DNA of 33,402 nucleotides from Planctomycetaceae bacterium (GTDB lineage Bacteria; Planctomycetota; Planctomycetia; Isosphaerales; Isosphaeraceae), in the NCBI GenBank assembly GCA_019237095.1, contig JAFAHT010000407.1:1-33402 (forward strand), in the 5' to 3' direction. Positions 940 to 33,402 of the stretch are shown piece by piece. Positions within the stretch are counted from its first letter, which is position 1. Each line of letters starts with the position of its first letter. Made by a program: the position numbers and the translations under genes. Under the pieces are notes generated by a model. That model was not told where the DNA came from. It was given only the letters and a program-made list of their open reading frames with translations, and ran no database searches.

Positions 940-945
940 TCCAGG

Positions 946-1591: not shown

Positions 1592-1614
1592 GAGAAAGCG
1601 CCAATCGAAGCCAA

Positions 1615-1651: not shown

Positions 1652-1774
1652 GGTTCTTCTGTTCTCGATGAAAGAGAACTAGTCCCTGTCACTTGGGGCT
1701 ATTTCGGGTAAGCCAAGCTGATCACGGATGGCGAACTGGTCCAAGTCTGTCTTCCCAGTCACTTCCTCCCGGAG

Positions 1775-1960: not shown

Positions 1961-2211
1961 GCATTGCTGGCTGCCTGAATCTCTACTTTTCTCTACCACA
2001 CGCCCGTCCAGTACCGGTAATGGCCCGCACGGCTCGCCGTGACGGTCAGCGCAAGGAAAGCGCCCTGTCTGTCGATCGGCGGGGTCTCCCCAGATCGGCC
2101 AAGCTATGCCATAATCCAAAAAGCCCTTTTTCGGAACGGTCAAGGAACCAGAACCAGCGGCTGGATGTGGGAATTACCCCGCCGATGCCGATTATCCGGG
2201 CGGAGCGAGCC

Positions 2212-2988: not shown

Positions 2989-3094
2989 CCCGGATATCGC
3001 GGCGAGGACCTCACGAGACGGCAAGAAACCCGGCAGCCGCGCACTGCGGCCGGCCCCAGATTCGTTGATCAGATGGGATGGGAAGGTGGGACTG

Positions 3095-4621
3095 ATGATG
3101 GACCTGGAAATGGATAAGCTGGTCTCGTTGTGCAAGCGCCGAGGGTTCATCTTCCCCTCGAGCGAGATCTATGGCGGAATCAACGGCTTCTGGGACTACG
3201 GTCCGCTCGGCGTCGAACTGAAGCGGAATATCAAAGAGGCCTGGTGGCGCGACAACGTCCAGATGCGCGACGACATGGTCGGGCTCGATTGCTCGATCAT
3301 CATGAATCCGCGTGTCTGGGAAGCCTCGGGCCATGTGGGAGGATTCAGCGACCCGATGGTCGACTGCAAGGACACCAAGGAACGGTACCGCGCCGACCAG
3401 CTTTACGTCTTCGCCTATGTCTTCCCAGCTGTGAACCACAAGGGAGAGCCGGCCGAGGCCTGGCTTGCCGGTCTGGGCAGCTCTCCCGGCGAGGCCGCCG
3501 AGCATCCCGAGAAAAAGGCCGCCAAGCTTGCCAAGAAGCTCGGCCAACCGACGGCGCCTCCCACGATCATCCCCTACATGCAGCTTGACCTCGCCGACCG
3601 CGACAAGGTCATCGGCCCATCGACCGACGAACGGGGTACGCTGACCGAGCCCCGATCGTTCAACCTCATGTTCAAGACATTCGTCGGCGCTCTGGAAAAC
3701 GAATCGAGTATCGCCTACCTCCGCCCGGAAACGGCCCAGGGAATCTTCGTCAACTTCAAGAACGTCGTCGATACCGGCCGCGTCAAGCTTCCCTTCGGCA
3801 TCGCCCAGGTCGGCAAGAGCTTCCGCAATGAGATCAACCCGCGCAACTTCACGTTCCGCTCGCGCGAGTTCGAGCAGATGGAGATCGAGTACTTCTGCCG
3901 GCCCGAGGAGGCCAAGGACTGGTATGCCTACTGGCGGAAGGCGCGGTTCCAGTGGTATGTCGACCTGGGCCTGAGATCGGATCGACTGCGGCTGCGCGAC
4001 CACGACGCCGAAGAGCTTGCCTTTTACTCGACGGCCACGGCAGACATCGAGTTTGCCTTCCCGTTCGGCATCAGCGAGCTGGAAGGGATCGCCCATCGGG
4101 CCGATTACGACCTCACCCAGCATATGAAGCATAGCGGCAAGGACCTCAGCTATTTCGACGAGGAGCTCAAGGAGCGGCTCGTGCCTCACGTCGTCGAGCC
4201 CTCAGCCGGCGCCGACCGCGCGACGCTGGCCTTCCTGTGCGAGGCCTACGCCGAGGACCAGGTAGGTGGCGAGACCCGCACCGTGCTCAAGTTCCATCCC
4301 CGGATCGCGCCCATCAAGGCCGCGATCTTCCCGCTGGTCAAGCGTGATAGCATGCCCGAGAAGGCCGAGGCCATCTATCGCGATCTGAGACGGCACTTCA
4401 ACGTCTTCTATGATGAGAAGGGAGCTATCGGCCGGCGGTATCGCCGGCAGGATGAGGCCGGGACTCCCTTCTGCATCACGGTCGACAGTCAGACGCTCGC
4501 CGAGGACACCGTCACCTTTCGCGACCGCGATAGCTGCTGGCAGTGGCGCGTGCCCATCGCCGGGGTCGTCCAGTCGCTCCGCGACCTGCTCGAGGGCCAG
4601 GCCATTCCGGCGAATCCTTGA
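3095..4621 (+). CDS. glyS: Glycyl-tRNA synthetase, dimeric type
   Basis: This 508-residue class II synthetase charges tRNA-Gly with glycine in the cytoplasm. It is the single-chain alpha-2 type (as in Thermus, archaea and eukaryotes), not the alpha2-beta2 GlyQ/GlyS type. Seen: an N-terminal catalytic start (LVSLCKRRGFIFPSSEIYGG, then GFWDYGPLGVELK), the glycine-enzyme signature RPETAQGIFVNFKNVV, motif 2 FRNEINPRNFTFRSREFEQ, GIAHRADYDL, and a C-terminal anticodon-binding domain that includes the motif 3-like end region. ATG 3095 is chosen because GGAAGG lies 8 nt upstream; ATG 3098 and 3110 are alternatives. Open frame continues upstream into comB but is not protein-like. It appears complete and essential. 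Confidence 0.95.
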   Translation: MMDLEMDKLVSLCKRRGFIFPSSEIYGGINGFWDYGPLGVELKRNIKEAWWRDNVQMRDDMVGLDCSIIMNPRVWEASGHVGGFSDPMVDCKDTKERYRADQLYVFAYVFPAVNHKGEPAEAWLAGLGSSPGEAAEHPEKKAAKLAKKLGQPTAPPTIIPYMQLDLADRDKVIGPSTDERGTLTEPRSFNLMFKTFVGALENESSIAYLRPETAQGIFVNFKNVVDTGRVKLPFGIAQVGKSFRNEINPRNFTFRSREFEQMEIEYFCRPEEAKDWYAYWRKARFQWYVDLGLRSDRLRLRDHDAEELAFYSTATADIEFAFPFGISELEGIAHRADYDLTQHMKHSGKDLSYFDEELKERLVPHVVEPSAGADRATLAFLCEAYAEDQVGGETRTVLKFHPRIAPIKAAIFPLVKRDSMPEKAEAIYRDLRRHFNVFYDEKGAIGRRYRRQDEAGTPFCITVDSQTLAEDTVTFRDRDSCWQWRVPIAGVVQSLRDLLEGQAIPANP

Positions 4622-6188: not shown

Positions 6189-8804
6189 ATGAGTCCTGAG
6201 CAGTCTGGTCGAGCGGGTAGGGCGTGGTCGATCGTACTGATCGTGGTGATTCTCACCTTGACCACGTGCTGCGTCGCGATCATGAACAGGCGGTCAGCCG
6301 AAGCGGGAGTCGAAACCTCTGCGGATGCGGACTGGCCCATGGTCTTGTTGCAGCATCTGGCTTTCTTCGTCATGGTGGGCCTGTTCGCATGGCACCAGCG
6401 GCGGGTGCTGGTGTTCCTGATCAAGCTCGCAGGTTGCAACTGGGTCATTGGTTCCGAGATCATGCTCTTGCTGGCAATCGTCTACGGAGCGTTTGGCGGC
6501 TTTGGCGTGCCCGAGCTGTTCTGGGACGATTCAACGATGACCGTGGGCGTCGCGGGCTTCAGCGCGATGCTGTTTCTCGAGTTGGCGTGGTGCGCCATCT
6601 ACCTGGCCGACTATTCGCGGCCGACCCGAAGCCAGCATCGGCGACTGGAGTGGAACCGGTTAGAACCCTTCGTGGTGGTGTCCGGGCTGCCCCGGCTCTT
6701 GAGAATGCCGACCCAGAACGTCTCTCCCCTCTGGCAGTTGGGCTGGTTCCTCGCAATCGCCTGCCTGCCCGGGCTGTTCCTGCTGGCACTGCCGGCGTTC
6801 CTGCCGGCAGTCCGCCCGTCGAGCGATCCGCGAGTCGTGGAATGGACCTGGCTGGCTGGCCTGATCCTGGGAGTGATGGTCCCACCGATTCTCCTGGTCA
6901 CCAGGCCGATCTCATTCTTCGTCCGCCAGCTTCGAAAAGGGTTTGGCAAACCCATGGCACCCGACCGATCGGGTGCGGTTTTCCATCCGCGCGTACTACT
7001 GTGGCTACTGGGATCGGTCTATGTGGCGGCCCTGATCGCTGATCGGTTCCAGCCGAAGTGGGTCGTACCCGCGGCCCTGCTTTGCCTGCTGCTGGCGATG
7101 ATTGCCGTTGCCGTCGCTTATTTTCTCTCGTTCCGCAGCCGGACTGCGCAGGTCTGGACCGCGCTCCTGGTACTGACCACCATCTTGCTCAATGGCATCC
7201 AGACCTATGATACCTGTTACCGCGGCCTGGCGCCCTATTACCCACCCGACCCGCTGCACCGGCTCATCCGGCTTCCCTCCCCGTTCTCGAGTAGCGACAG
7301 CAATACGCCGGTCAAGCTTGTCGATTACCAGGAGAAGAAGGATGTCAACAGAGCAGGCCGGGAAGCCGCGGTGCAGAAACGGACGGCGATTCTGGATGCC
7401 TGGAAGAACAGTGTTGGGCGCCAGACCGGCCCGGGCGATCCGGCCTCCGCCAGGCCGATCCTGGTCGCGATCGCAGCCGCTGGGGGCGGCCTTCGGGCCG
7501 GGGTCTGGACCGCGGCTGTTCTTGACGCGATCGGGAACGCGGTGCCCGAATTCCCCAAGCATGTCCGCTACGTCACCGGCGCATCGGGCGGCATGGTTGG
7601 AGCCGCCCTGTTCGTGACCTCGCGCTTGCGGGCCCCCGCGGCCGGCGGACTTCCGGGAACGCCCCCAGCCGTGGGCGGTCTTGCCAACCGACTCTCGAAT
7701 GATTACCTAAGTTCAATCACCCGGCAGTACATGCTCCGGGATCTACCTTTTGCGATCTTCCCCTGGCGTCAATCGTACGATCGCGGACATGCCCTGGAAG
7801 ACGCGATGGTTAATGAGGGCAAGCTCACCGAGTTGGGTTACACTTTTGCTCAATTGCTTGATGCCGAAAGCCAGGGCCAGATCCCCTCGCTGGTTTTCTC
7901 TCCCATGCTGGTCGAGGATGGGCGGCGGCTCTTGATCAGCAATCTCGAGCTGGACGACATTACCACGATCGACGGCGCGGTCCTCTCCGAGGACCGTAGC
8001 GAGTCCAAGAGCCGTAGCGAGATCGGCGAGTTGATAAAGCGTCAGACGCAGAAGATGCAGAAGATGCAGAAGCGACGCAAGAACCTGGAGTATCGAAAAA
8101 TCATCGCGATCCCCGCGGTCGAGTTCTTCCATCTCTTTCCCCAGGCTCGAGACACCTTCAAGGTGGTCACGGCCGTTCGTATGAACGCCACCTTCCCCGT
8201 CGTGACCCCGACTGGAGTCCTGCCAACGGACTCACCACGCCAGGTCGTCGACGCGGCCTACTACGACAATTACGGAGTTGACCTTGCCAGCGCCCTGATC
8301 TTCGCGCATCGCGAGTGGATTGCGCAGAACACGGCGGGAGTGCTGCTCGTCCAGATCCGCGCGTTCCATGACGAGATGCAGTTGAAGGTGCTCGACCAGC
8401 CCATCCTCTCGGAGTGGTTGGTCAACACGACCAGCAACGTGACCAACATCCTGGCCCGGGGAATTCGCTGGCTGACCTCGCCTGTTACCGGTATTGCCGA
8501 GGCACGCGAGGCCAACATGTACTACCGCAACGCCGGTCAAGTCCATGTCCTCGACCAGTACTTCCGGGAGCGTGTCAAAAGTGATCCCGATTTCTTCAAG
8601 ACAGTCGTCTTCACCTGCGACAGCAAGATCATGTCAACCGACGAACAGCAGGTCGCCACTCTCAACTGGCGCCTCTCGGACGAGGAGATGGCTCAGATCA
8701 AGAATAACATGACCAGCCGCGATCAGAACCAGATCCGGCTCAAGAAAATGACCGCGTGGTGGCGGCAACGCGGCAACGCGCCCCGACCGGCCAATGCGAG
8801 GTGA
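6189..8804 (+). CDS. Membrane-anchored patatin-like phospholipase
   Basis: This 871-residue protein joins a polytopic membrane half to a C-terminal patatin-like lipase. Residues ~10-340 contain about nine hydrophobic helices. Seen in the lipase part: the oxyanion loop GGGLRAG (~432-438), the nucleophile elbow GASGG with Ser~466, and the second dyad motif DAAYYDNYG with Asp~688. Patatins hydrolyse acyl lipids with a Ser-Asp dyad; here the substrate is probably membrane lipid, by inference. The usual DGG/DGA triplet is DAA, a mild variant. Residues ~600-635 are highly charged (a KMQKMQKRRK run). The start at 6189 has GAGGGGGG upstream. It ends convergently 24 nt from the minus-strand EamA gene. 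Confidence 0.85.
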   Translation: MSPEQSGRAGRAWSIVLIVVILTLTTCCVAIMNRRSAEAGVETSADADWPMVLLQHLAFFVMVGLFAWHQRRVLVFLIKLAGCNWVIGSEIMLLLAIVYGAFGGFGVPELFWDDSTMTVGVAGFSAMLFLELAWCAIYLADYSRPTRSQHRRLEWNRLEPFVVVSGLPRLLRMPTQNVSPLWQLGWFLAIACLPGLFLLALPAFLPAVRPSSDPRVVEWTWLAGLILGVMVPPILLVTRPISFFVRQLRKGFGKPMAPDRSGAVFHPRVLLWLLGSVYVAALIADRFQPKWVVPAALLCLLLAMIAVAVAYFLSFRSRTAQVWTALLVLTTILLNGIQTYDTCYRGLAPYYPPDPLHRLIRLPSPFSSSDSNTPVKLVDYQEKKDVNRAGREAAVQKRTAILDAWKNSVGRQTGPGDPASARPILVAIAAAGGGLRAGVWTAAVLDAIGNAVPEFPKHVRYVTGASGGMVGAALFVTSRLRAPAAGGLPGTPPAVGGLANRLSNDYLSSITRQYMLRDLPFAIFPWRQSYDRGHALEDAMVNEGKLTELGYTFAQLLDAESQGQIPSLVFSPMLVEDGRRLLISNLELDDITTIDGAVLSEDRSESKSRSEIGELIKRQTQKMQKMQKRRKNLEYRKIIAIPAVEFFHLFPQARDTFKVVTAVRMNATFPVVTPTGVLPTDSPRQVVDAAYYDNYGVDLASALIFAHREWIAQNTAGVLLVQIRAFHDEMQLKVLDQPILSEWLVNTTSNVTNILARGIRWLTSPVTGIAEAREANMYYRNAGQVHVLDQYFRERVKSDPDFFKTVVFTCDSKIMSTDEQQVATLNWRLSDEEMAQIKNNMTSRDQNQIRLKKMTAWWRQRGNAPRPANAR

Positions 8805-8828
8805 ATCACTCTCCGAGTGCCAGTCTCT

Positions 8829-9278
8829 TCAAAACAGAAATCGCTCCAGACGTTGCTGAACCGCGGGGAGGGTAAGTAGCACGCCCGCGACGATGAGCGC
8901 GGCGCCGGCCAGGGTCAGCGGCCGGACGGTTTCCTTGAGCACGAAAAAGCCCAAGACCATCGTGATCACAAAGCTGAGCTTGTCGATCGGCGCGACTCCG
9001 GAGATCGGGCCATGCTTGAGCGCGGCGAAGTAGAAAAGCCAGGACAGCCCTGTGGCGACCCCCGATAGTATGAGGGCCAACCAGCCGCGACCGGAGATCA
9101 AACCCAAATGTCGAAATTGCCCCGATGCCGTGACGATGCCCGTCGCAAAGAGCACCACCACGACCGTCCTGACCAGCGTGGCCAGATTGGAAGGAACCTG
9201 ACTCACCCCGATCTTGGCCAGCACGGCCGTGAGCCCCGCGAAAACCGCCGACAGCGCGGCGTACAAGGTCCAGTTCAC
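8829..9278 (-). CDS. Single-EamA-domain membrane protein
   Basis: This 149-residue hydrophobic protein has about five membrane helices and one EamA repeat, half of the usual ten-helix drug/metabolite transporter; such half-size members presumably dimerise. Seen: NWTLYAALSAVFAGLTAVLA at the start, GVATGLSWLFYFAALKHGPI and VAPIDKLSFVITMVLGFFVL, conserved features of this family (COG2510-like). The GTG at 9278 is chosen because GGAGGT lies just upstream on the minus strand. The frame is open another 230 nt upstream but reads as non-hydrophobic, unlikely protein. The transported substrate is unknown. Confidence 0.85.
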   Translation of the reverse strand: MNWTLYAALSAVFAGLTAVLAKIGVSQVPSNLATLVRTVVVVLFATGIVTASGQFRHLGLISGRGWLALILSGVATGLSWLFYFAALKHGPISGVAPIDKLSFVITMVLGFFVLKETVRPLTLAGAALIVAGVLLTLPAVQQRLERFLF

Positions 9279-19132: not shown

Positions 19133-19285
19133 TGGAAGGAAGTGGGTGAAGTTCACGGTGAGTTCTTCGACCAGATCAGGCCCGCTCTGACCATGGTTGA
19201 GATCGCGCGACTGATTGATGACGCTGCCATGATCGAGATTGAGGCCGACGCGATTGTCCACTCGGAGCATAAAGAGCACATCTAG
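19133..19285 (+). pseudogene. RidA-family C-terminal remnant
   Basis: The frame encodes WKEVGEVHGEFFDQIRPALT then MVEIARLIDDAAMIEIEADA and a stop at 19285. This matches the C-terminal third of RidA/YjgF-type proteins, which deaminate reactive enamine/imine intermediates; the conserved arginine before P is present (IRPA). The first ~80 residues are missing. Upstream sequence in the same frame (19004-19132) reads as unrelated basic sequence and contains the hairpin at 19034. It is a broken gene between two minus-strand genes. Confidence 0.65.
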
Positions 19286-19378
19286 CCCGCGGATCTCCAC
19301 GCTGCAGCGCGGGTGGACCGGGTTTTCTTCGATTGGATGCCTCGAATCTGGTTGTGGGAGAAAACTCGATCCGCCTGC

Positions 19379-19858
19379 TCACGGCGCGGATTGACGCAGA
19401 ACCTCCGGCACGGGCTGCCTTGCCAGGTAGAAGACATAGGCCGTGACGGCGCGGAGCTGGGCGGGTTCGAGCACCAGACCCCAGCCGGCCATGCGTGTAC
19501 CCTCCACGCCCTTGGAGATGACACCAAGCACCTCCTCGGGCTTGCCTCCGTGCTTCCACTTGCCGTCGCTGATGTTGCCGACGGGCGGCCCCAGCAGGCT
19601 GCCCGCGATCGGGCCGTCGCCGCGTCCTTCCTGGCCGTGACAGGTCGCGCAGCGGGCGAGGTAAATCGACCTCCCCTCGAGCAAGAGCGGGTCGCCTGCG
19701 ACTTCTGGCGGAGGAGGCGCGGGAGGCGAGCTGAGCATGTAGTACGTCAGGAAGCCCGCTGCTGCGAGCCCAAGCATTCCCAGGAAAACCCAACGCGCGG
19801 CCGCGGCATCAACCGCGCCGGCCCCATCGTCAACTGAGAGCGGATCGTCGGCTGCCAA
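19379..19858 (-). CDS. Membrane-anchored monoheme cytochrome c
   Basis: This 159-residue protein has an N-terminal membrane helix (residues ~23-42, WVFLGMLGLAAAGFLTYYML), a Pro-rich linker (PPAPPPPE) and a cytochrome c domain. Seen: the heme-attachment site CATCH (C70, C73, H74) and the likely axial methionine M123 (TRMAGW). It would face the periplasm and shuttle electrons, similar to class I cytochromes tied to oxidases or alternative complex III. No partner respiratory genes are in the window. The start at 19858 opens an acidic N-terminus. It appears complete. Confidence 0.87.
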   Translation of the reverse strand: MAADDPLSVDDGAGAVDAAAARWVFLGMLGLAAAGFLTYYMLSSPPAPPPPEVAGDPLLLEGRSIYLARCATCHGQEGRGDGPIAGSLLGPPVGNISDGKWKHGGKPEEVLGVISKGVEGTRMAGWGLVLEPAQLRAVTAYVFYLARQPVPEVLRQSAP

Positions 19859-21921: not shown

Positions 21922-22670
21922 GTGAAACGACCAACCATCCGTCTTCTCGCGCTCTTGCTGATTCTCAGGGTGGGCCATGCGACTATCCCGGTCTTGTTGC
22001 AGGCCCAGACCATCTGGGTTGAAGGGGAAAAGCCTGCTCGGTCGACCATGAGCCGACATCCCTGGTGGTACGACCAGGTCAAGAAGAACTTGCTTTCCGG
22101 AAGCGATTGGATGTCCAACTGGTCGGATGACAAGGACGGCGTGGCGGAGTATGTCATCGAGGTTCCGGCCACGGGTCACTACACGCTCTGGATCAGGGCA
22201 AACCCGGTTGGGACCCGGCTGGCTTACCTGATCGATTCGGGAAAATGGACGCCCATTGACATGACCGGCCGATCAAGCTCAAGGACGTGACGATCCAATC
22301 TTCGAACGATTACGCCACGGTGATGATTGTCTCGCTCGACAACCAGCCGCTGACCGAGAGCAAGCGGGTGCTCGTGCAGGTCGGCACGACCGCGAGGCCC
22401 ACCGGCTGGATCGAGCCCCAGACGACGTTTCAGGGAGACGACGGCAAGCAGACCTACCATGGCAAGCAGGTCGTCGATACGGGCAAGATGCCCTGGGCCA
22501 TAGCCGATGCCCAGATCACGCTGACGGTGGCGAACTCAGGCCTCACGGCGGCAACGCAACTCGACATCAATGGCAACCCGCGGACGAAACTCGAGACGAT
22601 CGCCCAGGGCCAGGCGATCCGGCTGCATTTGCCCAAGGATGCCCTGTACGTGGTGCTCGAGGCGAAGTGA
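21922..22670 (+). pseudogene. Secreted carbohydrate-type protein, central part deleted
   Basis: Two pieces of what looks like one secreted protein lie in different frames. The first (21922 to ~22263) has a signal peptide (MKRPTIRLLALLLILRVGHA) and a beta-rich domain (WVEGEKPARSTMSRHPWWYD, HYTLWIRANPVGTRLAYLID), like the N-terminal carbohydrate-binding-type module of planctomycete glycosidase-like proteins. The second (~22266-22670) is a beta-rich C-terminus (RPIKLKDVTIQSSNDYATVM, VTLVQVGT-like region). The joint is near 22263-22270, with frame 1 changing to frame 3. The catalytic middle expected between them is absent. A GTG at 21922 with GAGGGA upstream would begin it. The identity of the missing domain is an inference. 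Confidence 0.6.
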
Positions 22671-22680
22671 GGTGAAGACT

Positions 22681-22700
22681 GCCGGTGGATGCCGGTGGAT
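22681..22700 (+). repeat. 10-bp tandem duplication
   Basis: GCCGGTGGAT occurs twice in immediate succession, just after the stop at 22670. Confidence 0.7.
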
Positions 22701-22722
22701 GATTGACGATGCGGGAGCAAGG

Positions 22723-22960
22723 AGAAACGGTCCGAGCGGGGGCAGGAAGTGTTGGTAGCGCGCCGAGCTGGGTATCCATGGACTGAACAGATGGCCCGCA
22801 AAATGTTGAGAAATGTCGAGAAGCGCGGAGTTCAAGCAGCCAGAAACGGTCCGAGCGAGGACGGCAAGCGTTGGCAGCGCGTTGGGTTAGGTATCCATTC
22901 CCTGAAAAGCTGGGGCCGCAACTGGTCTAGAAAAGTCCGAGAAACGCGGAGTTCAAGCCC
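22723..22960 (+). repeat. Two-copy 119-bp tandem repeat
   Basis: Two adjacent imperfect copies, 22723-22841 and 22842-22960, share the start AGAAACGGTCCGAGCG, a middle GGTATCCAT and the end CGCGGAGTTCAAGC. They fill most of the 400 nt between the secreted-protein remnant and drmD. The frame through them (22749-23000) is open but gives different peptides from the two copies, so it is probably not coding. It may be a duplicated regulatory block, or intergenic repeat that drove recombination. Confidence 0.75.
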
Positions 22961-23008
22961 AGGTTCCGCACGTCTTCCGCAAGTAATTGAGATCAAATGA
23001 CTTACGAA

Positions 23009-23029
23009 GGACAAGGTTTACTGTTGTCC
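23009..23029. promoter_or_regulatory. Palindrome upstream of drmD
   Basis: GGACAA (23009-23014) and TTGTCC (23024-23029) form a 21-bp inverted repeat 42 nt before the drmD start. It could be an operator. No convincing -10/-35 pair could be placed with it. Confidence 0.35.
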
Positions 23030-23070
23030 GACACATAAACTGTCACCGATGTCTCAGAGGCTGCAACACC

Positions 23071-24914
23071 ATGGCGATCGCCGCAACGTCGCCCCCCGAG
23101 TCAGGTCAGCTCGTCAACGTTCGATCCCGGCGCTGGGTAGTTAACGAAGTTCAGGCGAGTCAGCTCTCACCCCGTCCCCTGGAATCGACAGCCGCCAAGC
23201 CCCAGCATCTCGTCTCACTGCTTTCCGTTGAAGACGACGCGCTCGGAGAAGAGCTTCAGGTCGTCTGGGAAATCGAGCCCGGGGCCAAGCTCATCGAGAA
23301 GGTGGCCCTGCCCGAGCCGACCGCCTTCGATTCACCTGACCGGCTCGATGCCTTTCTCGATGCCGTTCGATGGGGAGCCGCTTCGACCGCAGACCTACGG
23401 AACATCCAGGCCCCGTTTCGTTCCGGCATCGACATCGAAGATTACCAGCTTGACCCGGTGGTCCGGGCCATCCAGATGCCACGGGTCAACCTCCTGGTCG
23501 CCGACGACGTGGGCCTGGGCAAGACGATCGAGTCTGGCCTGGTGGCCCTCGAGCTGATCATCCGGCACCGGGCCAGACGAGTTCTGGTCGTCTGCCCGGC
23601 CTCGCTTCAGATCCAGTGGCGCGATCAGATGCGGGACAAGTTCGGGCTCGACTTCCGCATCGTCGATAGCGAGAGGAGACGAAGGTCGGCGACCTTGACG
23701 CCGACCTGGAGTTCTTGATGCGAGCCGTCCGCAAGGTCGAGGCGATCCGTGAAGACCTTGGCAAAGTGGGTCCGGTGATCGCCGAGCAGGTCGAGGAGGC
23801 CATGCTGGGCCGGCGCACCCGGCTCGACACCCGCAAGGCGGAAACCGAGGTCGAACCGATCCGGAAGCTGTTCAAGTTCGAGCGGGATCTCGAAAAGCAG
23901 ATCCGCCTGTTGCTGGACCGGCTCAACGCCACCAAGCGCGACCTGCGGCTCGACCCCGAGAACGTCCAGAAGGTGGTCGAGGTGGCCCTGGAGCTCGCCG
24001 GTCAGCCCAAGCTCGTCGAGGCCAAGGTGTCCGGCCTCTGGCCCGATCCCAAGCGGTCGAAGTGCCCGGTGTTCCGGCTGCCGGTCCTGTCCGACGCCTG
24101 GGCACTGTGCGCTGAGGGGCTGGCGCACCCGTTCACGGGAGAGGCCCGCCCGTTCGTGTTCGATCACGCGCTGGCGCAGGGCCGCGAGGATGTGGTCCTG
24201 GTCCACCTGAATCATCGGCTCGTCCAGATGAGCCTGCGGCTGCTGCGGGCCGAAGTCTGGTCGCAGGAGGGGCAGAAGAAGCGGCTGAACCGGGTGACGG
24301 CCCGTGTCGTCCCCGACTCGTCCCTGCGGCACCTCGCCGTGGTCGCCCATGCCCGGCTGGTCGTCATCGGCGGAGATAGCCAGCGACTCCACGAGGAGAT
24401 CATCACGGCCGTCGGCCCGATCCGGGAAGGGCGATTCTCCCGGTTTGGCTCGCTCAAGGAGATGCAAGACGCTCTTGCGTCGGCGACGGATGAGGAGCCA
24501 GCCGATCTGGTGAAAGAGAAACTCCTTCGACTCTGGCAGTACATCGCCGAGCCGTTGCACCAAACCCTGGAGGCCCGCAAGAACGACCGGACGGACGGCC
24601 TCAAGAAACTGCTCCAGGACCGTGCCAACAAGGAGGTGTCCGACATCACGGCGATCCTCAACGAGTTGCGGCAGGCGATCGAAGGGCAACTGGACGACCC
24701 GTATTACCGGGAAAACTACCTCCCCGGCTTCGCCCCGGCGGAGCAGGAACAGTTCGAGCGAAACGTCGATGCGCTCAGGCGACGATTGGAGGAGATCCCC
24801 GGGGAGATCAAGAAAGAGACCGAGGCGATCCGGGCACGGTTTGCCGATCCGCAGCCACGGATGTTTCCGGTGGCAGTTACGTTCTTGGTGACCGAGAGGT
24901 TGGCGAGGGTCTAG
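23071..24914 (+). pseudogene. drmD: DISARM helicase DrmD, core deleted
   Basis: DrmD is the SNF2-type helicase that marks class 1 DISARM, an anti-phage system. The first piece (23071 to ~23673) carries the family start (ELQVVWEIEPGAKLIEKVAL), NIQAPFRSGIDIEDYQLDPV, the Walker A ADDVGLGKTIES and ARRVLVVCPASLQIQWRDQM, ending FGLDFRIVDSE. The second piece (from ~23670, another frame) starts ETKVGDLDADLEFLMRAVRK and runs to 24914 with a charged helical C-terminus. The DEAH box, motif III and the whole second RecA domain, which should lie between them, are absent. The total is ~610 residues where family members have about 1,000 or more. The frame change at the joint would stop translation near 23718. 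It cannot encode an active helicase as given. Confidence 0.85.
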
Positions 24915-25186
24915 CGGAGGATTCCCAACATGGGTATCCGGGATTTCCGGAGGGCTTTCCGGCTCGCGAAGAACGACGGATTCGTGTTGTTCTATTGATC
25001 GGCTTCGCGCGAGTTCACGACCGATGCCGGCCGAGAGTCATCACCAGACCTCGCGGCGGGGAACCTCTCCCTTAGACGCGGGGACGAACTCCGCGCAGGC
25101 ACGGGAAAAGGAACAGGCCAAGGGAAATTGCCGCACCTGCGGCGGTCTGGGCGCGGTATGATGGCTAAAGGTGAAGGAGATTCTCG
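24915..25186. other. Spacer with a 22-codon ORF
   Basis: A short reading frame, ATG 24930 to TGA 24998 (MGIRDFRRAFRLAKNDGFVL and two more residues), has CGGAGG 9 nt upstream. It begins 15 nt after the drmD stop. It could be a leader peptide, the remnant of a lost gene or chance. The rest of the spacer has no clear signal; TATGAT at 25157-25162 lacks a properly spaced -35. Confidence 0.35.
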
Positions 25187-25591
25187 GTGGCCGTGATCCG
25201 GCTGGTTTCCGCAGCGGATAGCCAGGGAGGGGCGCTGAGGGCGGGCGGCGCTCGGCTACCAGACGAGGCTTTCGTGGTGCGGTGCGGGTTGCCGCCGTTT
25301 CGTGGCCGACCGCTCTTCACGGCGTGCGATGATCATCCGGACGGCGTCTACGGTTTCTCGGTGCAGTCCGCGGCGGCATTAACTGTGGAACAACTGGCGT
25401 CGGCATGCCGGAACAAGACCGTCGGTGCCACGACCGTCGCACGAATCCGCGAAATGGGCTTCGACGTCGTTCCGACAAGCGGCCAGTGGTGGCATGCGAC
25501 CGTCGTCGTCCCGAAGGGCTGGAGCCAAGCGGAAGCTGAGGGGCTGTCCCTGCTCTTCGAGCCGATCAGCAACCCGGCTGCCAGGAGGTGA
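25187..25591 (+). CDS. Unrecognised protein inside DISARM locus
   Basis: This 134-residue protein matches no family I recognise. It is a compact soluble protein with VIRLVSAADSQGGALRAGGA at the start, a core RCGLPPFRGRPLFTACDDHP, a YGFSVQSAAALTVEQLASAC segment and a conserved-looking GQWWHATVVVPKGWSQAEAE end. It has no signal peptide or membrane helix. Start GTG 25187 is supported by AAGGAG about 7 nt upstream. It ends 2 nt before the next gene, so the two are co-translated. Class 1 DISARM normally has drmD followed by drmMI, so this is an addition. A role in DISARM is inferred from position alone. Confidence 0.68.
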   Translation: MAVIRLVSAADSQGGALRAGGARLPDEAFVVRCGLPPFRGRPLFTACDDHPDGVYGFSVQSAAALTVEQLASACRNKTVGATTVARIREMGFDVVPTSGQWWHATVVVPKGWSQAEAEGLSLLFEPISNPAARR

Positions 25592-25593
25592 TC

Positions 25594-26538
25594 ATGAGGC
25601 TGATCTCCGCTGACTTCAACGCGATGACGGAGGCCGGACACGTCCGGTTGACCCTCCCGTGCTCGCGGGAGGATATCCTGCGGATGAGTCTCCGCCCCGG
25701 CGACTGGGCCTGGCTCAGCGACTGTGAGGTCTTGGTGGGCGCGCAACTGGCCATCGACGATCGCTACGGACTGGTCGGCGTCCCCGACTGGGATACCCTC
25801 GTGCACCTGGACGAAGAAGGCGCCGACGACTTCAACCGCGTCAGCGCCGCGCTCAACCCGTTGCTGAACGGGGAACCTCCCTCAATCGAGGAGGAACCAC
25901 GGATTCTCGAGCTCCTGACCCAATTGGAGCACGTCGCGCCGCCGCAGATCAAAGACGCCTCTCCGGGGACTTTCGCCTTCCGGCGTGCTCTCGCCCTGCG
26001 CCAGATGGGTAAGCTGGGCCTGGCGCTCTTGGAGATCGAGGACGCTCGACGCTTCCGGCCTGACGACCCGGAAGTCGTCTTCGTTCACCTCGATCTCCTG
26101 CGTCTCGAGGACTTCCCCGCCGCGATCGCGGAGGCCGAAACAGTCGCCCGATCGCCGAGTGTGCCCGCCCTTGTCTTATCGGCGTGCATCAACATCCTCG
26201 CGACCCAAGCGGAGCAGGCGGCCGCTGACCAGTTCGAGCCGGCTGCTCGGCGAGTCCTCGACTGGTGTCGCCGGCTCGATCAAGCCCCGGACCGCGAACA
26301 AGCGGGGGAGTCACTGCTGGCCTTGTCTCACTTCAACCGCGGCCTCGTGCTCCTCCGAGCGGGCCGGGTCTCCCAAGCTCGAGAAGCATTCGAACACGCG
26401 CACCGGATCTATCCCGTAGGTCCGATGCTCCATGAGGTCGCCGGGCTCCAGACTTACGATCGACACGCCCGCGAGATCGCGAGGAACGTGCGAACGCTCG
26501 CGGAGCGGTGGGTTCCAACGAGGCCGGTTGCCGCATAG
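25594..26538 (+). CDS. TPR-like protein inside DISARM locus
   Basis: This 314-residue protein has an N-terminal ~75-residue beta-type domain (MRLISADFNAMTEAGHVRLT, RPGDWAWLSDCEVLVG, DRYGLVGVPDWDTL) and an alpha-helical repeat region. Seen: helix pairs FRRALALRQMGKLGLALLEI, then EDARRFRPDDPEVVF, and later FNRGLVLLRAGRVSQAREAF with HAHRIYPVGP, typical of tetratricopeptide repeats. TPR proteins are protein-binding scaffolds. ATG 25594 is 6 nt from AGGAGG; an in-frame GTG at 25588 abuts it. The stop lies 8 nt before the drmMI start, so it is in the same operon. It matches no known DISARM component, and its function is unknown. Confidence 0.72.
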   Translation: MRLISADFNAMTEAGHVRLTLPCSREDILRMSLRPGDWAWLSDCEVLVGAQLAIDDRYGLVGVPDWDTLVHLDEEGADDFNRVSAALNPLLNGEPPSIEEEPRILELLTQLEHVAPPQIKDASPGTFAFRRALALRQMGKLGLALLEIEDARRFRPDDPEVVFVHLDLLRLEDFPAAIAEAETVARSPSVPALVLSACINILATQAEQAAADQFEPAARRVLDWCRRLDQAPDREQAGESLLALSHFNRGLVLLRAGRVSQAREAFEHAHRIYPVGPMLHEVAGLQTYDRHAREIARNVRTLAERWVPTRPVAA

Positions 26539-26546
26539 CTCACGCC

Positions 26547-29500
26547 ATGCCTTCTTCCCGCCACCACACCGAATGGCTCTCCCTGATCGAGGTATCCGGC
26601 CCGTTTCTGTCGGTCCCGGTCCTGGAGCGGGTGTTTCCGCAGGGGCTCGACGCCCACGACCCGGATCACGTCCGGGTGTTGCGGCTGGCGTTCGACGAGT
26701 GGGAGGACGATCGAGACAGCGACTCGCCACGACCGGCGATCCATCGGAAGTGGATTCGCTTCGTGCTCAAGGAGACGCTCGGGCTGCCCGGTGAGGTCTT
26801 GGCCGAGGGTCAGTCGATCCCCCAAACGCTCAAGGCGACGATCTCCGAGCATCACGAGACATTGCGGCCCGATGTGGTCGTCCGCAACCCCGAGGGGGTG
26901 CCGAATGCCGGGAAGCCCCGGCTGCTGGCCCAGGTCTATCCGCCGGAGCAGAACCTCGAAAAGCCGATCACCGGCCGGCATTGGAAGGCGTCTCCGGCGA
27001 CCCGGATGATGGAGCTGCTCCACGCCACCGACGTGCGGCTGGGGCTCGTTACCAACGGCGAGCACTGGATGCTGGTCGATGCGCCGAGGGGTGAGACGAC
27101 CGGCTTCGCCTCGTGGTATGCGACCCTCTGGCTGGAGGAGCCGCTCACCCTCAGGGCGTTCCGCAGCCTGCTGGGGGTGAGCCGGTTCTTCTCGGCGGCG
27201 GACGCCGCCACGCTGGAGCAGATGCTCAGGGACAGCGCCACGCACCAGCAGGAAGTCACGGACCGGCTGGGCTATCAGGTGCGTGAAGCCGTCGAAGAGA
27301 TCATCCGGGCGCTCGACCGGATCGACCAGGACGAAAAGCGGCAACTCCTGGCGGGCGTGTCCGAGCCCGAACTCTACCCGGCCGCCCTCACGGTCATGAT
27401 GAGGCTGGTGTTCCTGTTCTCGGCCGAGGAGCGGGACCTGCTGCTGCTCGGTGACTCCCTTTATGATGAGCACTACGCCGTCTCGACCCTCGTGGCCCGG
27501 CTCCAGGAGACGGCCGACCAGCACGGCGAGGAGATCCTGGAGCGGCGGCGCGATGCCTGGGTCCGGCTCCTCTCCACGTTCCGGGCGGTCTACGGCGGCG
27601 TTCAACATGAGCGGATGAAGCTGCTCCCCTACGCCGGGAACCTGTTCAACCCCGACGAGTTCCCCTTCCTCGAAGGGCGCAAGGCGGGAACGACGTGGAA
27701 GAGCACGCCCGCCACGCCACTGCCGATCGACAACCGCACCGTGCTGCACCTCCTGCGGTCGCTCCAGTACCTCGAACTGCATGGTGAGGCACGCCGCCTG
27801 AGCTTCTGGGCGCTCGACATCGAGCAGATCGGTACCGTGTACGAGGGCTTGCTAGACCATACCGCCAAGCGGGCGAACGAGCTGATGGTCAGCCTGACCG
27901 CCGCCAAGGGGGACGAGCCCGAGGCCGCCATCTCGGAACTGGAGCGGCTCAAGGCCAAAGGGGAAACCGAGCTTCTCAAGTTCCTGAAAGAGCAGACCGG
28001 CCGGGGCGAGAACGCATTGACGAAGGCGCTGGCGACCCCGAGAGAGGGTATCGAAGCGAAGAAGCTGCGGGCCGCCTGTGGCAACGATGATGCGCTCTTC
28101 AACCGATTGCGGCCCTTCTCGGGGCTGGTCAGGAACGACACGTTCGACCGACCGGTCGTCATCCGTAAGGGCTCCGTCTACGTCACTGTTGGGACCGACC
28201 GGCGCTCCAGCGGCACGCACTACACGCCTCGCAGCCTGACCGAGCCGATCGTCCAGTACACGCTGGAACCGCTGGTGTACGTTGGCCCTGCTGAGGGGAA
28301 GCCGAAGGAGGAATGGGTTCTTCGCCCGGCCAAAGACCTGCTCGACCTCAAGATCTGCGACATGGCGTGCGGCTCGGGAGCCTTCTTGGTCCACGTGTGC
28401 CGGTATCTGGCCGAACGGCTGTTGGAGGCGTGGGAGGACGCAGAAAAGCGGCACCCTGGCGTGCCGGGCATCACGCCCGAGGGTTCCGCCTCGACCGGAG
28501 CAGCGAACGAGCAACTCATACCGAAGGACACGGATGAGCGGCTGGCCTACGCCCGCCGCATCGTGGCTCAGCGGTGCCTCTACGGGGTGGACAAGAACCC
28601 GCTGGCGGTGGAGATGGCGAAGCTGTCGCTCTGGCTGCTGACGCTGGCCAAGGACAGGCCGTTCACGTTCCTGGACCATGCCATCCGGTGCGGCGACTCG
28701 CTCGTGGGAGTCAGCAGCGAGACCCAGTTGAAGATGTTCTCGCTGGATAGTCAGGGGATCGGGATCACGCTGCCAAACTTCCTCGACATGATCCCCAAGA
28801 TCCTGGATGCGACCCGCCTCCTGCGAATCCGTCTGGAGAAGATCGCCGACGAGACTGTCGGCAACATCGAGGAGAAGCAGCGGCTTTTCGACAATATCCG
28901 GTTCCAGACCAAGCGTCTGAACTATGCCGCTGACCGCCTGCTGGCGGCAAGCTGGGAACCAGCAAAACCGGCCGAGAGGGTCGCTTTGCTCAGGAAGGCG
29001 CTCCAGGAGGTGGACGACCGGATCAGGGACGTAGACCCCGAGACGCTGGAGGCCGAGGTGCTTGCCCACCTCAAGGAAGCGGGATGTGCCCGTACGTTCC
29101 ATTGGACGCTGGAGTTCCCGGAGGTCTTCCTGGACCGGGGTGGGTTCGATGCGTTTGTCTGCAACCCGCCATTCATGGGCGGGCAGAAGATCACGGGCAA
29201 TCTCGGCACGGATTACCGGGACTATCTGGTCGAGCATCTTGCCAAAGGGAAACGAGGCAGTGCCGACCTGTGCTCCTACTTCTTCCTGCTGGCGGCTTCG
29301 TTGCTTCGGGAGGGAGGTCAACTTGGCTTCCTCGCCACGAACACCATCGCCCAGGGAGATACCCGAGAGGTTGGCCTCGACCAGTTGACGGCCATGGGCT
29401 GCGTCCTCCCCCGAGCGGTCCCCAGCCGCAAGTGGCCGGGCACGGCGAACCTCGAAGTCGCCCACGTCTGGTTGCGGAAGGGCCGCTGGGCCTCACCGTT

Positions 29501-31049
29501 CGTGCTCGATGAGAAGCCGGTTTCGGGGATCACGGCATTCCTCACCGAACCGGGCACCGTCAGCGGCCCGCCACACCGCCTGGCCGCCAACGCCGGGAAG
29601 TCGTTCCAGGGCTCGATCGTCCTGGGAATGGGCTTCGTGCTGGAGCCGGAGGAGGCCCAACGTCTCATCGCCAAGAATCGTCATAACAAAGATGTGCTGT
29701 ATCCCTACCTCAACGGCGAAGACCTCAACTCCCGGCCCGATCAGTCGCCGAGTCGATGGGTTATCAACTTCTTCGACTGGCCGCTCGATCGGAAGACGGC
29801 CCCGGAACCCGGAAGACTATGTGGGCCGGTGGCGGCGGATTACCCGGATTGCCTGGCGATTGTTGAGGAGAAGGTGAAGCCGGAGCGGATGAAGAATAAC
29901 CGGAAGGTGTATCGGGAAAAGTGGTGGCACTTTGCCGAGAAACGTCCCGAACTCTACTGTACCATCGCCGGGATGGAGCGGGTGCTGGTCTGCCCGATCG
30001 TCACGAAGTACGTATCCTTCAATTTCGTTTCTTCTGGCATCGTATATATGCACAAGTTGTGCGTATTTGCTTATGACAGCTTCGATGCCCTTGCCGTCTT
30101 GAATTCAAGTTTCCATGAGCCGTGGGTCCGAGAGTTTTGCTCGACCCTTGAGACAAGGTTGAACTATAGCCCTGCCGATTGTTTCGAGAACTTTCCCCTG
30201 CCAGACCACCGGAGGGTTCTCCAAGCAGTGGGGTTGTCATTCAACGATCACCGCCACAAGATCATGCTCTCCCGCCAAGAGGGCTTAACCAAGACCTACA
30301 ACCGATTTCACAACCCCGCCGAATCTGCTACCGACATCCAGAAACTCCGTGACCTCCACGTCGAGATGGACAAGGCCGTCGGCGCCGCCTACGGCTGGTC
30401 CGATCTCGACCTCGGCCACGGCATCCACGAGACCAAGCAGGGAATCCGGTTCACTATCAGCGAGTCGGCCCGCAGGGAAGTCCTCACCCGCCTCCTGAAG
30501 CTCAACCACGAACGCTATGCTGAGGAAGTCAAGCAGGGCCTCCACGACAAGAAGGGCAAGGCCAAACCCGCATCGGGTGGCCGGGGTCGAAAATCCAAAG
30601 CATCCACGAGCACGCCAAGCTTAAAGTTCGGCGGCGACGAAGAGGACCCCGACCCTCCGGACGACTCAGACGAAGAGCCGACGTCCACCCGAACAGGCAC
30701 TATACCCAAACCAAACCGAGCCGACCGCCAAGTTCAACCAACCCCGACTCCCGAAACGCCTGCCCGCCCGACGCCGATCGATCAGATCGAGACCGGATCA
30801 TGGCAGCGTTCCGCCAAGCCGCCCGGAACAGGGGCTGGCTCGATCGAGACGAGCTTCTCAAGGAAGTCTCCCTCGTCCTCGGCTACCAACGGCTCGGACC
30901 CAAGATCGACGAAGCCCTCCGGGGCCACCTCCGAGCCGCCATCCGCCGCCGGATCATCGAGACCGAGGGTCCCAATCTCGTTCGTGCCGGGGCCGTCAAC
31001 ATGGCCGACTACGAACCCGACGAACTCGTCGAGGTCTTCCGCTCCGTGA
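26547..31049 (+). CDS. drmMI: DISARM N6-adenine DNA methylase DrmMI (3'-frameshifted)
   Basis: DrmMI methylates host DNA at adenine so DISARM spares it. This frame gives 1500 residues. Seen: a large N-terminal region (specificity or nuclease-like), SAM-binding motif I DMACGSGAF (~605-613) and catalytic NPPF (873-876), the N6-adenine type, then SGIVYMHKLCVFAYDSFDAL and a low-complexity linker at ~1330-1415 (EEDPDPPDDSDEEPTSTRTG). After about 30793 the frame yields Ser/Pro-rich nonsense to 31049, while another frame continues with MAAFRQAARNRGWLDRDELL, the expected C-terminal winged-helix-like domain. A one-base indel near 30793 best explains this. Methylase motifs are intact, so activity without the tail is possible. 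ATG 26547 is used. Confidence 0.87.
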   Translation: MPSSRHHTEWLSLIEVSGPFLSVPVLERVFPQGLDAHDPDHVRVLRLAFDEWEDDRDSDSPRPAIHRKWIRFVLKETLGLPGEVLAEGQSIPQTLKATISEHHETLRPDVVVRNPEGVPNAGKPRLLAQVYPPEQNLEKPITGRHWKASPATRMMELLHATDVRLGLVTNGEHWMLVDAPRGETTGFASWYATLWLEEPLTLRAFRSLLGVSRFFSAADAATLEQMLRDSATHQQEVTDRLGYQVREAVEEIIRALDRIDQDEKRQLLAGVSEPELYPAALTVMMRLVFLFSAEERDLLLLGDSLYDEHYAVSTLVARLQETADQHGEEILERRRDAWVRLLSTFRAVYGGVQHERMKLLPYAGNLFNPDEFPFLEGRKAGTTWKSTPATPLPIDNRTVLHLLRSLQYLELHGEARRLSFWALDIEQIGTVYEGLLDHTAKRANELMVSLTAAKGDEPEAAISELERLKAKGETELLKFLKEQTGRGENALTKALATPREGIEAKKLRAACGNDDALFNRLRPFSGLVRNDTFDRPVVIRKGSVYVTVGTDRRSSGTHYTPRSLTEPIVQYTLEPLVYVGPAEGKPKEEWVLRPAKDLLDLKICDMACGSGAFLVHVCRYLAERLLEAWEDAEKRHPGVPGITPEGSASTGAANEQLIPKDTDERLAYARRIVAQRCLYGVDKNPLAVEMAKLSLWLLTLAKDRPFTFLDHAIRCGDSLVGVSSETQLKMFSLDSQGIGITLPNFLDMIPKILDATRLLRIRLEKIADETVGNIEEKQRLFDNIRFQTKRLNYAADRLLAASWEPAKPAERVALLRKALQEVDDRIRDVDPETLEAEVLAHLKEAGCARTFHWTLEFPEVFLDRGGFDAFVCNPPFMGGQKITGNLGTDYRDYLVEHLAKGKRGSADLCSYFFLLAASLLREGGQLGFLATNTIAQGDTREVGLDQLTAMGCVLPRAVPSRKWPGTANLEVAHVWLRKGRWASPFVLDEKPVSGITAFLTEPGTVSGPPHRLAANAGKSFQGSIVLGMGFVLEPEEAQRLIAKNRHNKDVLYPYLNGEDLNSRPDQSPSRWVINFFDWPLDRKTAPEPGRLCGPVAADYPDCLAIVEEKVKPERMKNNRKVYREKWWHFAEKRPELYCTIAGMERVLVCPIVTKYVSFNFVSSGIVYMHKLCVFAYDSFDALAVLNSSFHEPWVREFCSTLETRLNYSPADCFENFPLPDHRRVLQAVGLSFNDHRHKIMLSRQEGLTKTYNRFHNPAESATDIQKLRDLHVEMDKAVGAAYGWSDLDLGHGIHETKQGIRFTISESARREVLTRLLKLNHERYAEEVKQGLHDKKGKAKPASGGRGRKSKASTSTPSLKFGGDEEDPDPPDDSDEEPTSTRTGTIPKPNRADRQVQPTPTPETPARPTPIDQIETGSWQRSAKPPGTGAGSIETSFSRKSPSSSATNGSDPRSTKPSGATSEPPSAAGSSRPRVPISFVPGPSTWPTTNPTNSSRSSAP

Positions 31050-31112
31050 TGCGTAAAGGCACGACCTACGACCGTGAAGAAATCATCCCCGCACTGGCTC
31101 GACACCTGGGAG
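30794..31112 (+). pseudogene. Out-of-frame and cut C-terminal piece of drmMI
   Basis: In a different frame from the rest of drmMI, this stretch encodes RGWLDRDELLKEVSLVLGYQ, RGHLRAAIRRRIIETEGPNL, VRAGAVNMADYEPDELVEVF and RSVMRKGTTYDREEIIPALA, two winged-helix-like repeats expected at the methylase C-terminus. It breaks off after ALARHL near 31105-31112. The last ~45 residues and the normal end of the gene are missing, and the next codons in a third frame belong to drmA. An ATG at 30800 could re-initiate translation of this piece. Confidence 0.7.
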
Positions 31113-33402
31113 GAGATCGACGAGCAGAGCGTTCGGGACCGCCACCTTGCCGGGATGCTTGCCCCCAAGCGGCAGGAACTCTCACCCGAGCAGTTCGACG
31201 AGCTTTCCCAGGGGGGTAGCGGATCGGTCGAGGACGGGGCCACCGAATCGTCGTCCCCGACAACGAAGACGATGTTCCCGTCGTCGTTCGGGATGACGTT
31301 TTGCGTCGGCCTCGAAGCGGAGGCCCTCCAGATCACGGCTCGATGGGGGCACTATCACCGGGATCGGAGCGAAACCCTCACGGCCAAGAGCGGCGACAAG
31401 AAACTGGTCTGGAAGCGTGCCCAGCGAGAGGCTGTCTCCGAAGCGATCCCGCTGAAGGTCGGGAGGCTGAACTGGACCCCGGATGGGGAGTTCCCAGAGG
31501 TCCAAGTTCAGGGCCTCGTCCGCAAGCGGGACGACTTCTGGAGCGTCACACTCTTCCTTGTCAACGGCCAGCAGGAGCCCAAGAAACTGCGCGACTCGGC
31601 CTGGGTCTTTCAGCCCGAACTGATCGTGGAGTCGCCCGGTAAGGAAGCCATCTTTCACAGTCGCCCTCAACAGAAAGACCCAGGCAAGAGCGATCCTGTG
31701 ACCTTCGCCGAGGAGCAGGAAATGGCGATGCTCTATCGCCACCACGTCGAGTTCGGCGTCGGACATGGCGTGAGCGTCCACGCCGAATGCCCGGATGGTA
31801 TCTGCGACAAAGCGTCTCGGCTCTCGACCAGGGTGGTCCCCACCCACGAGGTGCCCCAGACAACGCCACCGACCACGGCTGATTGGCCCAGGATGTCCGG
31901 GCTGGTGCTCGACATGAAGGAGTTGGGCGAAACACCCACGTCCCAGATTGAGTCCAAGCTCCGGCCGCTGATCACGGCCTATGACGCCTGGATCAAGGAC
32001 CGGCAGGCGGAGCTCAAGAAACCCGATATGGCCCTCTATCAGAAGCCGGGCGAGGCGGCTTTGACTCGGTGCAAGGTCACGCTCCAGCGGATCGAGGAGG
32101 GGCTCCAACTGATCCTCGACGACGGCAAAGCCGCGGACGCCTTCCGATTCGCCAATCTGGCCATGTGGAAGCAGCGCATCCAGACGATCATCTCGCTCAG
32201 ACGACGCCGTGATGAGCCGGTGGACGAGCGCGCCATCGACATCCCTGAGAACCGCTCCTGGTATCCCTTCCAGTTGGCCTTCATCCTGCTCAATTTGCCG
32301 AGCATCACCCGGCTCGACCACAAGGACCGAACGTCCGAATCGGAGGCGATGGCCGATCTGCTGTGGTTCCCGACAGGGGGAGGCAAGACAGAGGCGTACC
32401 TTGGACTGTCGGCCTACACGATGGGGCTACGGAGGCTCCAGGGGACGGTGGCCGGTCGCTCTGGCGAGTGCGGCATCGCCGTGCTGATGCGCTATACGCT
32501 GCGGCTACTGACCATCCAGCAGTTCCAGCGGGCCACTGCCCTGATCTGTGCCTGCGAAGTGATCCGGCGGTCCGACGAGAAGACATGGGGCAAGGAACCG
32601 TTCCGCATCGGCCTCTGGGTGGGACAGAAGACGACCCCGAATACGACCGATGCCGCCGCCGAGGCAATCCAGGAGGAGCGCGGTGGCAAATACAAGGGAC
32701 GAGGCAGCGGCACCCCGGCCCAACTGACGAATTGCCCTTGGTGCGGGACCAAGATCAACGCCGGGCAGCACATCAAGGTTGAGAGCTATACAAAGGGGCG
32801 ATGCCGCACTGTGACATACTGTGGCGACGAACTGGGCCGTTGCCCCTTCAGCGCCAAGAACTCTCCGCTCGAGGGCATCCCGGTCCTGGTCGTGGACGAG
32901 GAAATCTACCGGCGACTGCCAACCTTGCTGATCGCCACCGTGGACAAGTTCGCCCAGATGCCCTGGAACGGCAAGGTGGGGATGCTGTTCGGCCAGGTGG
33001 ACGCCTTCTGCCCCCGCCACGGCTTCTGCTCCCCCGAGCTGGCCTGCGGTATGAACCACCCGAAAAAGGATAAATGGCCCGCGGTCCGTGTGCAGCCGCA
33101 CAAGCCGCTGCGTCCGCCGGACCTCATCATCCAGGACGAGCTGCACCTGATCTCCGGGCCGCTGGGGACGCTGGTCGGCCTGTACGAGACGGCGGTGGAT
33201 CGGCTCTGCACCTGGGAGGCCGGCGGCAAGAAGGTCCGGCCCAAGGTGATCGCCTCGACGGCGACCATCCGCAAGGCCGGCGACCAGGTCCACGCCACCT
33301 TCCTGCGGCGAGTAAGCGTCTTCCCGCCTCAGAGCCTCGACGTGCGAGATAACTTCTTCTCCCGCCAGCGGCCGCCGAGCGAGGCCGAACCCGGTCGGCT
33401 GT
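31074..33402 (+). CDS. drmA: DISARM helicase DrmA, N-terminus lost, runs off window
   Basis: DrmA is the core DISARM helicase. The frame is open without a stop from 31050 to the window end. Seen: EEIDEQSVRDRHLAGMLAPK at the first conserved residues, TMFPSSFGMTFCVGLEAEAL, GFWVTLFLVNGQ-like region, the Walker A WFPTGGGKTEAYLGL (~32364-32400), cysteine pairs of a zinc-ribbon-like insert (NCPWCG at 32730-32747; YCGDELGRCPF), the DELH box (33135-33146) and STATIRKA (~33255). The family's first ~25 residues and a start codon are absent; the nearest in-frame starts are GTG 31074 (no good ribosome binding site) and ATG 31155. The second RecA domain, drmB and drmC should lie beyond 33402. Confidence 0.83.
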   Translation, partial: MKKSSPHWLDTWEEIDEQSVRDRHLAGMLAPKRQELSPEQFDELSQGGSGSVEDGATESSSPTTKTMFPSSFGMTFCVGLEAEALQITARWGHYHRDRSETLTAKSGDKKLVWKRAQREAVSEAIPLKVGRLNWTPDGEFPEVQVQGLVRKRDDFWSVTLFLVNGQQEPKKLRDSAWVFQPELIVESPGKEAIFHSRPQQKDPGKSDPVTFAEEQEMAMLYRHHVEFGVGHGVSVHAECPDGICDKASRLSTRVVPTHEVPQTTPPTTADWPRMSGLVLDMKELGETPTSQIESKLRPLITAYDAWIKDRQAELKKPDMALYQKPGEAALTRCKVTLQRIEEGLQLILDDGKAADAFRFANLAMWKQRIQTIISLRRRRDEPVDERAIDIPENRSWYPFQLAFILLNLPSITRLDHKDRTSESEAMADLLWFPTGGGKTEAYLGLSAYTMGLRRLQGTVAGRSGECGIAVLMRYTLRLLTIQQFQRATALICACEVIRRSDEKTWGKEPFRIGLWVGQKTTPNTTDAAAEAIQEERGGKYKGRGSGTPAQLTNCPWCGTKINAGQHIKVESYTKGRCRTVTYCGDELGRCPFSAKNSPLEGIPVLVVDEEIYRRLPTLLIATVDKFAQMPWNGKVGMLFGQVDAFCPRHGFCSPELACGMNHPKKDKWPAVRVQPHKPLRPPDLIIQDELHLISGPLGTLVGLYETAVDRLCTWEAGGKKVRPKVIASTATIRKAGDQVHATFLRRVSVFPPQSLDVRDNFFSRQRPPSEAEPGRL

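What the first reader, a model, noticed from the sequence alone, without database searches (positions are those of the whole stretch)
23660..23690. drmD internal deletion joint
Sequence reads ...FGLDFRIVDSE in one frame and ETKVGDLDADL... in another, with only a short GAG overlap at the joint. The first piece stops right after the first helicase motifs and the second has none. Both flanks are well conserved, so this is a clean deletion of roughly 1-1.5 kb rather than gradual decay.
Basis: partly seen in the sequence, partly recalled or inferred. Interest (0 to 1): 0.6.

Follow-up and report, generated by a model that had tools for sequence, protein, structure and literature searches.

The report
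Broken drmD gene, internal deletion
A bacterial anti-phage defence gene has lost about 1.4 kb from its middle, which removes most of its motor domain and almost certainly breaks it; the gene next to it has been cut the same way, so this looks like ordinary recent gene loss in a shrinking stretch of genome rather than a new mechanism.

Summary
The joint is real in the assembled sequence. Window 23071-23673 matches PADLOC DrmD profile positions 9-203 of 1040; 23673-24914 matches 642-1038. Against the nearest full-length DrmD (L012, 78-80% aa identity) 1362 nt are missing and 2 nt are unassigned: net 1360, a frame change. Walker A stays; helicase motifs II, III, V and VI are lost. Both pieces evolve no faster than intact L012, so the deletion looks recent. 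No direct repeat of note flanks it. The middle is not elsewhere in the 92%-complete bin.

Two other shortened drmDs sit in decayed loci, and drmD is broken beside a kept methylase on two isolate plasmids. I read this as an ordinary pseudogene: the class 1 DISARM translocase is lost, the methylase DrmMI kept. An assembly error at both joints cannot be excluded without reads. Low interest.

The parts
23071..23673 (+). drmD 5' piece (201 aa): N-terminal region plus helicase motif I (Walker A); open frame runs on out of frame to the TGA at 23716-23718
23674..23675 (+). deletion joint: 2 unassigned bases (AG); about 1362 nt of drmD missing here, net loss 1360 nt
23676..24914 (+). drmD 3' piece (412 aa): RapA-like C-terminal region, no helicase motif
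23716..23720 (+). TGATG: stop of the 5' piece overlaps an in-frame ATG of the 3' piece; incidental, since the same TGATG is present in 11 of 17 relatives that hold the motif
25187..25591 (+). 134-aa ORF with no PADLOC or Pfam match, between drmD and drmMI
25588..26538 (+). TPR protein between drmD and drmMI; not conserved in the relatives looked at
26508..31049 (+). drmMI, DISARM adenine methyltransferase, full length (profile 3-1336/1347)
31074..33402 (+). drmA helicase, open to the contig end
21922..22266 (+). upstream hydrolase-like gene, 5' piece
22272..22670 (+). same upstream gene, 3' piece; about 2.0 kb missing between 22266 and 22272, frame changed
22723..22958 (.). two copies of a ~117-bp interspersed repeat between the two broken genes

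Best explanation
drmD of a class 1 DISARM anti-phage operon in a planctomycete lost about 1.36 kb from its middle in one recent event that needed no long repeat (illegitimate or end-joining type; the event itself is inferred). Shown: the missing part carries helicase motifs II to VI, the reading frame changes, and the flanks are otherwise intact. Inferred: no working SNF2/RapA-type translocase is made, so the operon is inactive or impaired, while DrmMI can go on methylating host DNA and so no self-restriction follows. The same stretch is losing DNA more generally: the adjacent hydrolase-like gene has its own 2.0 kb internal deletion, and the contig is much shorter than the colinear stretch of a same-genus genome.
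For: Piecewise profile and protein matches. Breakpoints against 16 relatives. Relative-rate test level with L012, and 83 of 85 (N) and 107 of 111 (C) relative-invariant columns kept. The joint shares no long word with either side, which a k-mer assembler would normally need to misjoin (the assembler point is recalled knowledge). Second, independent joint in the neighbour. Window 2201-22578 colinear with G001 4127973-4199111 (71 kb), for example 124 bp here against 6.9 kb in G001 and about 4.3 kb in G002. drmMI intact and single in the bin. Similar outcomes elsewhere: L025, L088, Sinorhizobium meliloti pC and Nocardioides JS614 pNOCA01.
Against: The source is a 603-contig, 92%-complete bin without read data, and two joints 1.4 kb apart on one contig could also be two errors of one assembly step. 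The bin also lacks the rest of a second drmD cut at the end of C360, so absence of the middle from the bin is weak evidence. G001 may have gained DNA rather than this lineage losing it. That DrmD is needed for class 1 DISARM activity was not found in any text I could read.
Confidence: 0.76

Rival explanations
1. Assembly error: the organism has an intact drmD (and an intact hydrolase-like gene) and a scaffold or gap-filling step dropped about 1.4 kb and 2.0 kb.
For: Fragmented bin (603 contigs); two frame-changing joints within 1.4 kb on one contig, with an interspersed repeat found at about 40 places in the bin lying between them; pieces show no decay.
Against: No direct repeat at the breakpoints that could mislead a k-mer assembler: longest in-register match 4 bp in L012, at most 8 bp in 16 relatives; no Ns at the joint; the missing middle is not on any other contig of the bin.
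Confidence: 0.17
2. A working split DrmD without motor: the 5' piece and the 3' piece are made as two polypeptides by stop-start coupling at TGATG (23716-23720), and the RapA-like C-terminal part keeps a structural role in DISARM.
For: The stop of the first frame overlaps an in-frame ATG, with GGAG 6 nt upstream. L088 (G367) holds a much shortened drmD whose three pieces are in one frame, and L025 has an in-frame internal deletion.
Against: The ATG is an internal codon of intact DrmD and TGATG is already there in 11 of 17 relatives, so the overlap is incidental. L088 sits beside a 58-aa scrap of drmMI, and L025 has lost its N-terminus too, with no DrmMI match in the 3.6 kb held downstream: both look like relics. 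The first ~60 residues of the C piece are predicted with low confidence.
Confidence: 0.04
3. A natural short DrmD lineage in which the helicase core was dropped long ago.
For: Some PADLOC DrmD profiles are short (273-508 positions).
Against: The joint is out of frame. 18 of 33 loci examined are full length in one piece; none shares this joint. The window branch shows no change of rate.
Confidence: 0.02

Closest known systems
DrmD, SNF2/RapA-like helicase of class 1 DISARM (PADLOC PDLC02621)
   Same: Both pieces match the family end to end apart from the missing middle; the operon neighbours drmMI and drmA follow.
   Different: Profile positions 204-641 are missing and the frame is broken.
RapA (RNA polymerase-associated Swi2/Snf2 protein)
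   Same: L012 DrmD matches RapA over the first motor lobe (E 3.1e-29); the modelled C piece matches RapA by fold (Foldseek E 2.8e-7).
   Different: DrmD belongs to a defence operon; the fold match is partial (TM 0.40 on the query).
Defence-system pseudogenes, as discussed for PADLOC (PMC9252829, passages seen)
   Same: A multi-gene defence operon with one gene broken and the neighbours intact.
   Different: A single internal deletion rather than a frameshift or insertion.
drmD interrupted by IS1380 in Nocardioides sp. JS614 pNOCA01
   Same: drmD broken, methyltransferase gene next to it full length.
   Different: Insertion, not deletion; an isolate plasmid.

Membership tests
DrmD (class 1 DISARM helicase) | sequence match to DrmD profiles | tested here: met
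   both pieces
DrmD (class 1 DISARM helicase) | complete SF2 motor (motifs I to VI) | tested here: not met
   only motif I remains
DrmD (class 1 DISARM helicase) | one continuous open frame of about 1050 aa | tested here: not met
   two frames of 243 and 399 aa
Class 1 DISARM operon (PADLOC rule: DrmA, B, C, D, MI; PMC9252829 passage) | drmMI and drmA next to drmD | tested here: met
Class 1 DISARM operon (PADLOC rule: DrmA, B, C, D, MI; PMC9252829 passage) | drmB and drmC in the same operon | tested here: inconclusive
   contig ends in drmA; the only DrmB match in the bin is on C572 behind a different drmA; drmC not searched
Pseudogene by internal deletion | flanks orthologous to both ends of an intact gene, middle absent, frame broken | tested here: met
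Pseudogene by internal deletion | lesion present in the organism's DNA, not only in the assembly | not testable with these tools
   no reads held

The most novel reading that the evidence does not exclude
Loss of the motor from drmD is a recurrent, tolerated route: the window, L025 and L088 lost the core independently, the last two in frame, so a motorless DrmD C-terminal part may persist as a DISARM or host-protective remnant, possibly made by stop-start coupling in the window.
Probability: 0.05. Interest if true: 0.5.

Novelty: new member of a known kind. Interest (0 to 1): 0.2.

Why it matters
It warns against counting this operon as a working DISARM, and gives one recent-looking case in which the translocase is lost while the protective methylase is kept. 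The second broken gene beside it shows that the locus, not just the defence gene, is losing DNA (or is misassembled).

Tried and rejected
Flanking direct repeats: none of note in 16 relatives. Middle elsewhere in the bin: not found; the other matches are a different drmD (C360, 43%) and other helicase-like matches. Joint 35-mer in viral contigs: 0 matches. Conserved accessory genes between drmD and drmMI: the relatives' genes there are unrelated. Promoter and terminator scan of 22600-26600: no promoter-like site, two terminator-like sites where 2.8 are expected by chance. Rfam on the upstream repeat: nothing. Papers: searches for drmD, for DISARM with pseudogen/incomplete, for drmD with truncat, for DISARM with unmethylated DNA recognition, and for Isosphaeraceae with DISARM gave no report of this joint in what I saw (search listings; passages only of PMC9142583, PMC10925250, PMC9716671, PMC12458937 and PMC9252829). 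The founding DISARM paper is not held.

Full report
Observation. The window is the whole contig C30 (33,402 bases) of a 603-contig, 5.62 Mb, 92%-complete genome. Window 23071-23718 and 23673-24914 are two open stretches that match opposite ends of DrmD, the SNF2-type helicase of class 1 DISARM: PADLOC PDLC02621 positions 9-203 and 642-1038 of 1040. The nearest full-length homologue is L012 (JAFANO010000339, a Planctomycetaceae MAG), 78% identical over the C piece and 80% over the N piece. Placed on it, the N piece ends with the codon at 23671-23673 and the C piece starts at 23676; 1362 nt of L012 lie between and two window bases (23674-23675) are unassigned, so the net loss is 1360 nt and the frame changes. 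In the 16 relatives the corresponding stretch is 1320-1464 nt.

What is lost. In L012 the Walker A motif is on the N side of the joint; the DEAH, TATPHNG, ATDAASEGID and QRNGRIDR stretches are in the lost part (the motif numbers are recalled). The C piece begins just behind the motor. A model of the C piece (20-row alignment; mean pLDDT 76, first ~60 residues poor) matches RapA by fold (E 2.8e-7), and L012 DrmD matches RapA by sequence over the first motor lobe. The C piece alone has no sequence match in the PDB at E 0.1.

Age and cleanliness. With 7 outgroups the number of changes unique to the window and unique to intact L012 is about equal in both pieces (largest chi-square 2.67, on 47 sites and with fewer changes on the window side). 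Of columns invariant in 12 relatives the window keeps 83 of 85 (N) and 107 of 111 (C). Of those invariant in the 11 relatives other than L012, the window keeps 85 of 88 and 107 of 116, and L012 keeps 85 of 88 and 111 of 116. So decay is slight or none.

Is it only this gene? No. The ORFs at 21922-22290 and 22287-22670, just upstream, are the two ends of one hydrolase-like gene (the name is my reading of the homologues; Pfam gave no match): both match the same 951-aa protein of G005 (58% and 51% identity), with about 1992 nt missing between 22266 and 22272 and a change of frame. The homologues in G001 and G002 (same genus) match the C-terminal part only and lack this N-terminal domain. Window 2201-22578 is colinear with G001:C1:4127973-4199111, 71 kb there; for example 19283-19407 (124 bp) faces 6.9 kb in G001, and about 4.3 kb in G002. 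Other genes (phosphosulpholactate phosphatase, a class II tRNA synthetase, a kinase, an aminotransferase, drmMI) give near-complete family matches. G000 is 5.6 Mb and its two congeners about 10 Mb. This fits a lineage losing DNA, but gain in the congeners, or an assembler that dropped stretches, would look alike.

The rest of the system. drmMI is full length and the only one in the bin. drmA is open to the contig end. A second drmA 3' end with a drmB lies on C572 (76% nt identity to this drmA over 784 bp, so another copy), and a second, divergent drmD 5' part runs off the end of C360. A second DISARM in the same bin is therefore likely and could make loss of this one tolerable (inference).

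How common is it? Of 33 loci examined with the L016 DrmD, 18 (L016 itself included; L021 and L022 look like copies of one sequence) carry it in one full span, 13 are cut by ends or are otherwise partial, and 2 are internally shortened: L025 (residues 117-385 joined in frame to 680-1062; its N-terminus also gone) and L088 (three pieces, about 9-69, 736-871 and 1037-1061, in one frame, beside a 58-residue scrap of drmMI). Of 392 genomes of the phylum sampled, 27 had a match to the C piece, 9 of these with E below 1e-50 including the window's own. In isolate plasmids (46 records with a match; two of them opened) drmD is in fragments in Sinorhizobium meliloti LMB1 pC and split by an IS1380 element in Nocardioides JS614, each followed by a full-length methyltransferase gene. 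Broken drmD beside a kept methylase is thus nothing special.

Function. From the PADLOC definition (passage in PMC9252829) a class 1 DISARM needs DrmA, B, C, D and MI. Without a motor in DrmD the operon is probably inactive or impaired; DrmMI alone should be harmless to the host. This is inference: I could read no text that tests DrmD. The stop-start overlap TGATG at 23716-23720 could let the C piece be made, but TGATG is part of the normal coding sequence in 11 of 17 relatives, so it is no sign of design.

Verdict. The feature is ordinary: an internal-deletion pseudogene with a second one next to it. Whether both are in the organism or in the assembly needs reads.

Noticed in passing
window 21922-22670: Hydrolase-like gene upstream of drmD has lost about 2.0 kb from its middle with a change of frame.
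   Followed up: yes
window 22723-22958: Two tandem copies of a ~117-bp repeat, found at about 40 other places in the bin, several at contig ends, and also right before the second drmD on C360 (7233-7331); no Rfam match.
   Followed up: partly
window 2201-22578 against G001:C1:4127973-4199111: Colinear with a same-genus genome but about 20 kb here against 71 kb there; the bin is 5.6 Mb and the congeners about 10 Mb.
   Followed up: partly
L061 (G000:C572) 1-3762 and L046 (G000:C360) 7468-8898: Parts of what is probably a second DISARM in the same bin: drmA 3' end plus drmB, and a divergent drmD 5' part.
   Followed up: partly
L088 3837-4556 (G367:C581) and L025 7681-10149: Internally shortened drmD genes that keep one reading frame, in decayed DISARM loci.
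   Followed up: partly
window 25187-26538: Slot between drmD and drmMI holds unrelated small genes in different species (134-aa ORF and TPR protein here).
   Followed up: partly
L045 8834-10873 (G047): In G047 an LmuB-like gene (PADLOC) lies next to drmA, on the side away from drmB.
   Followed up: no
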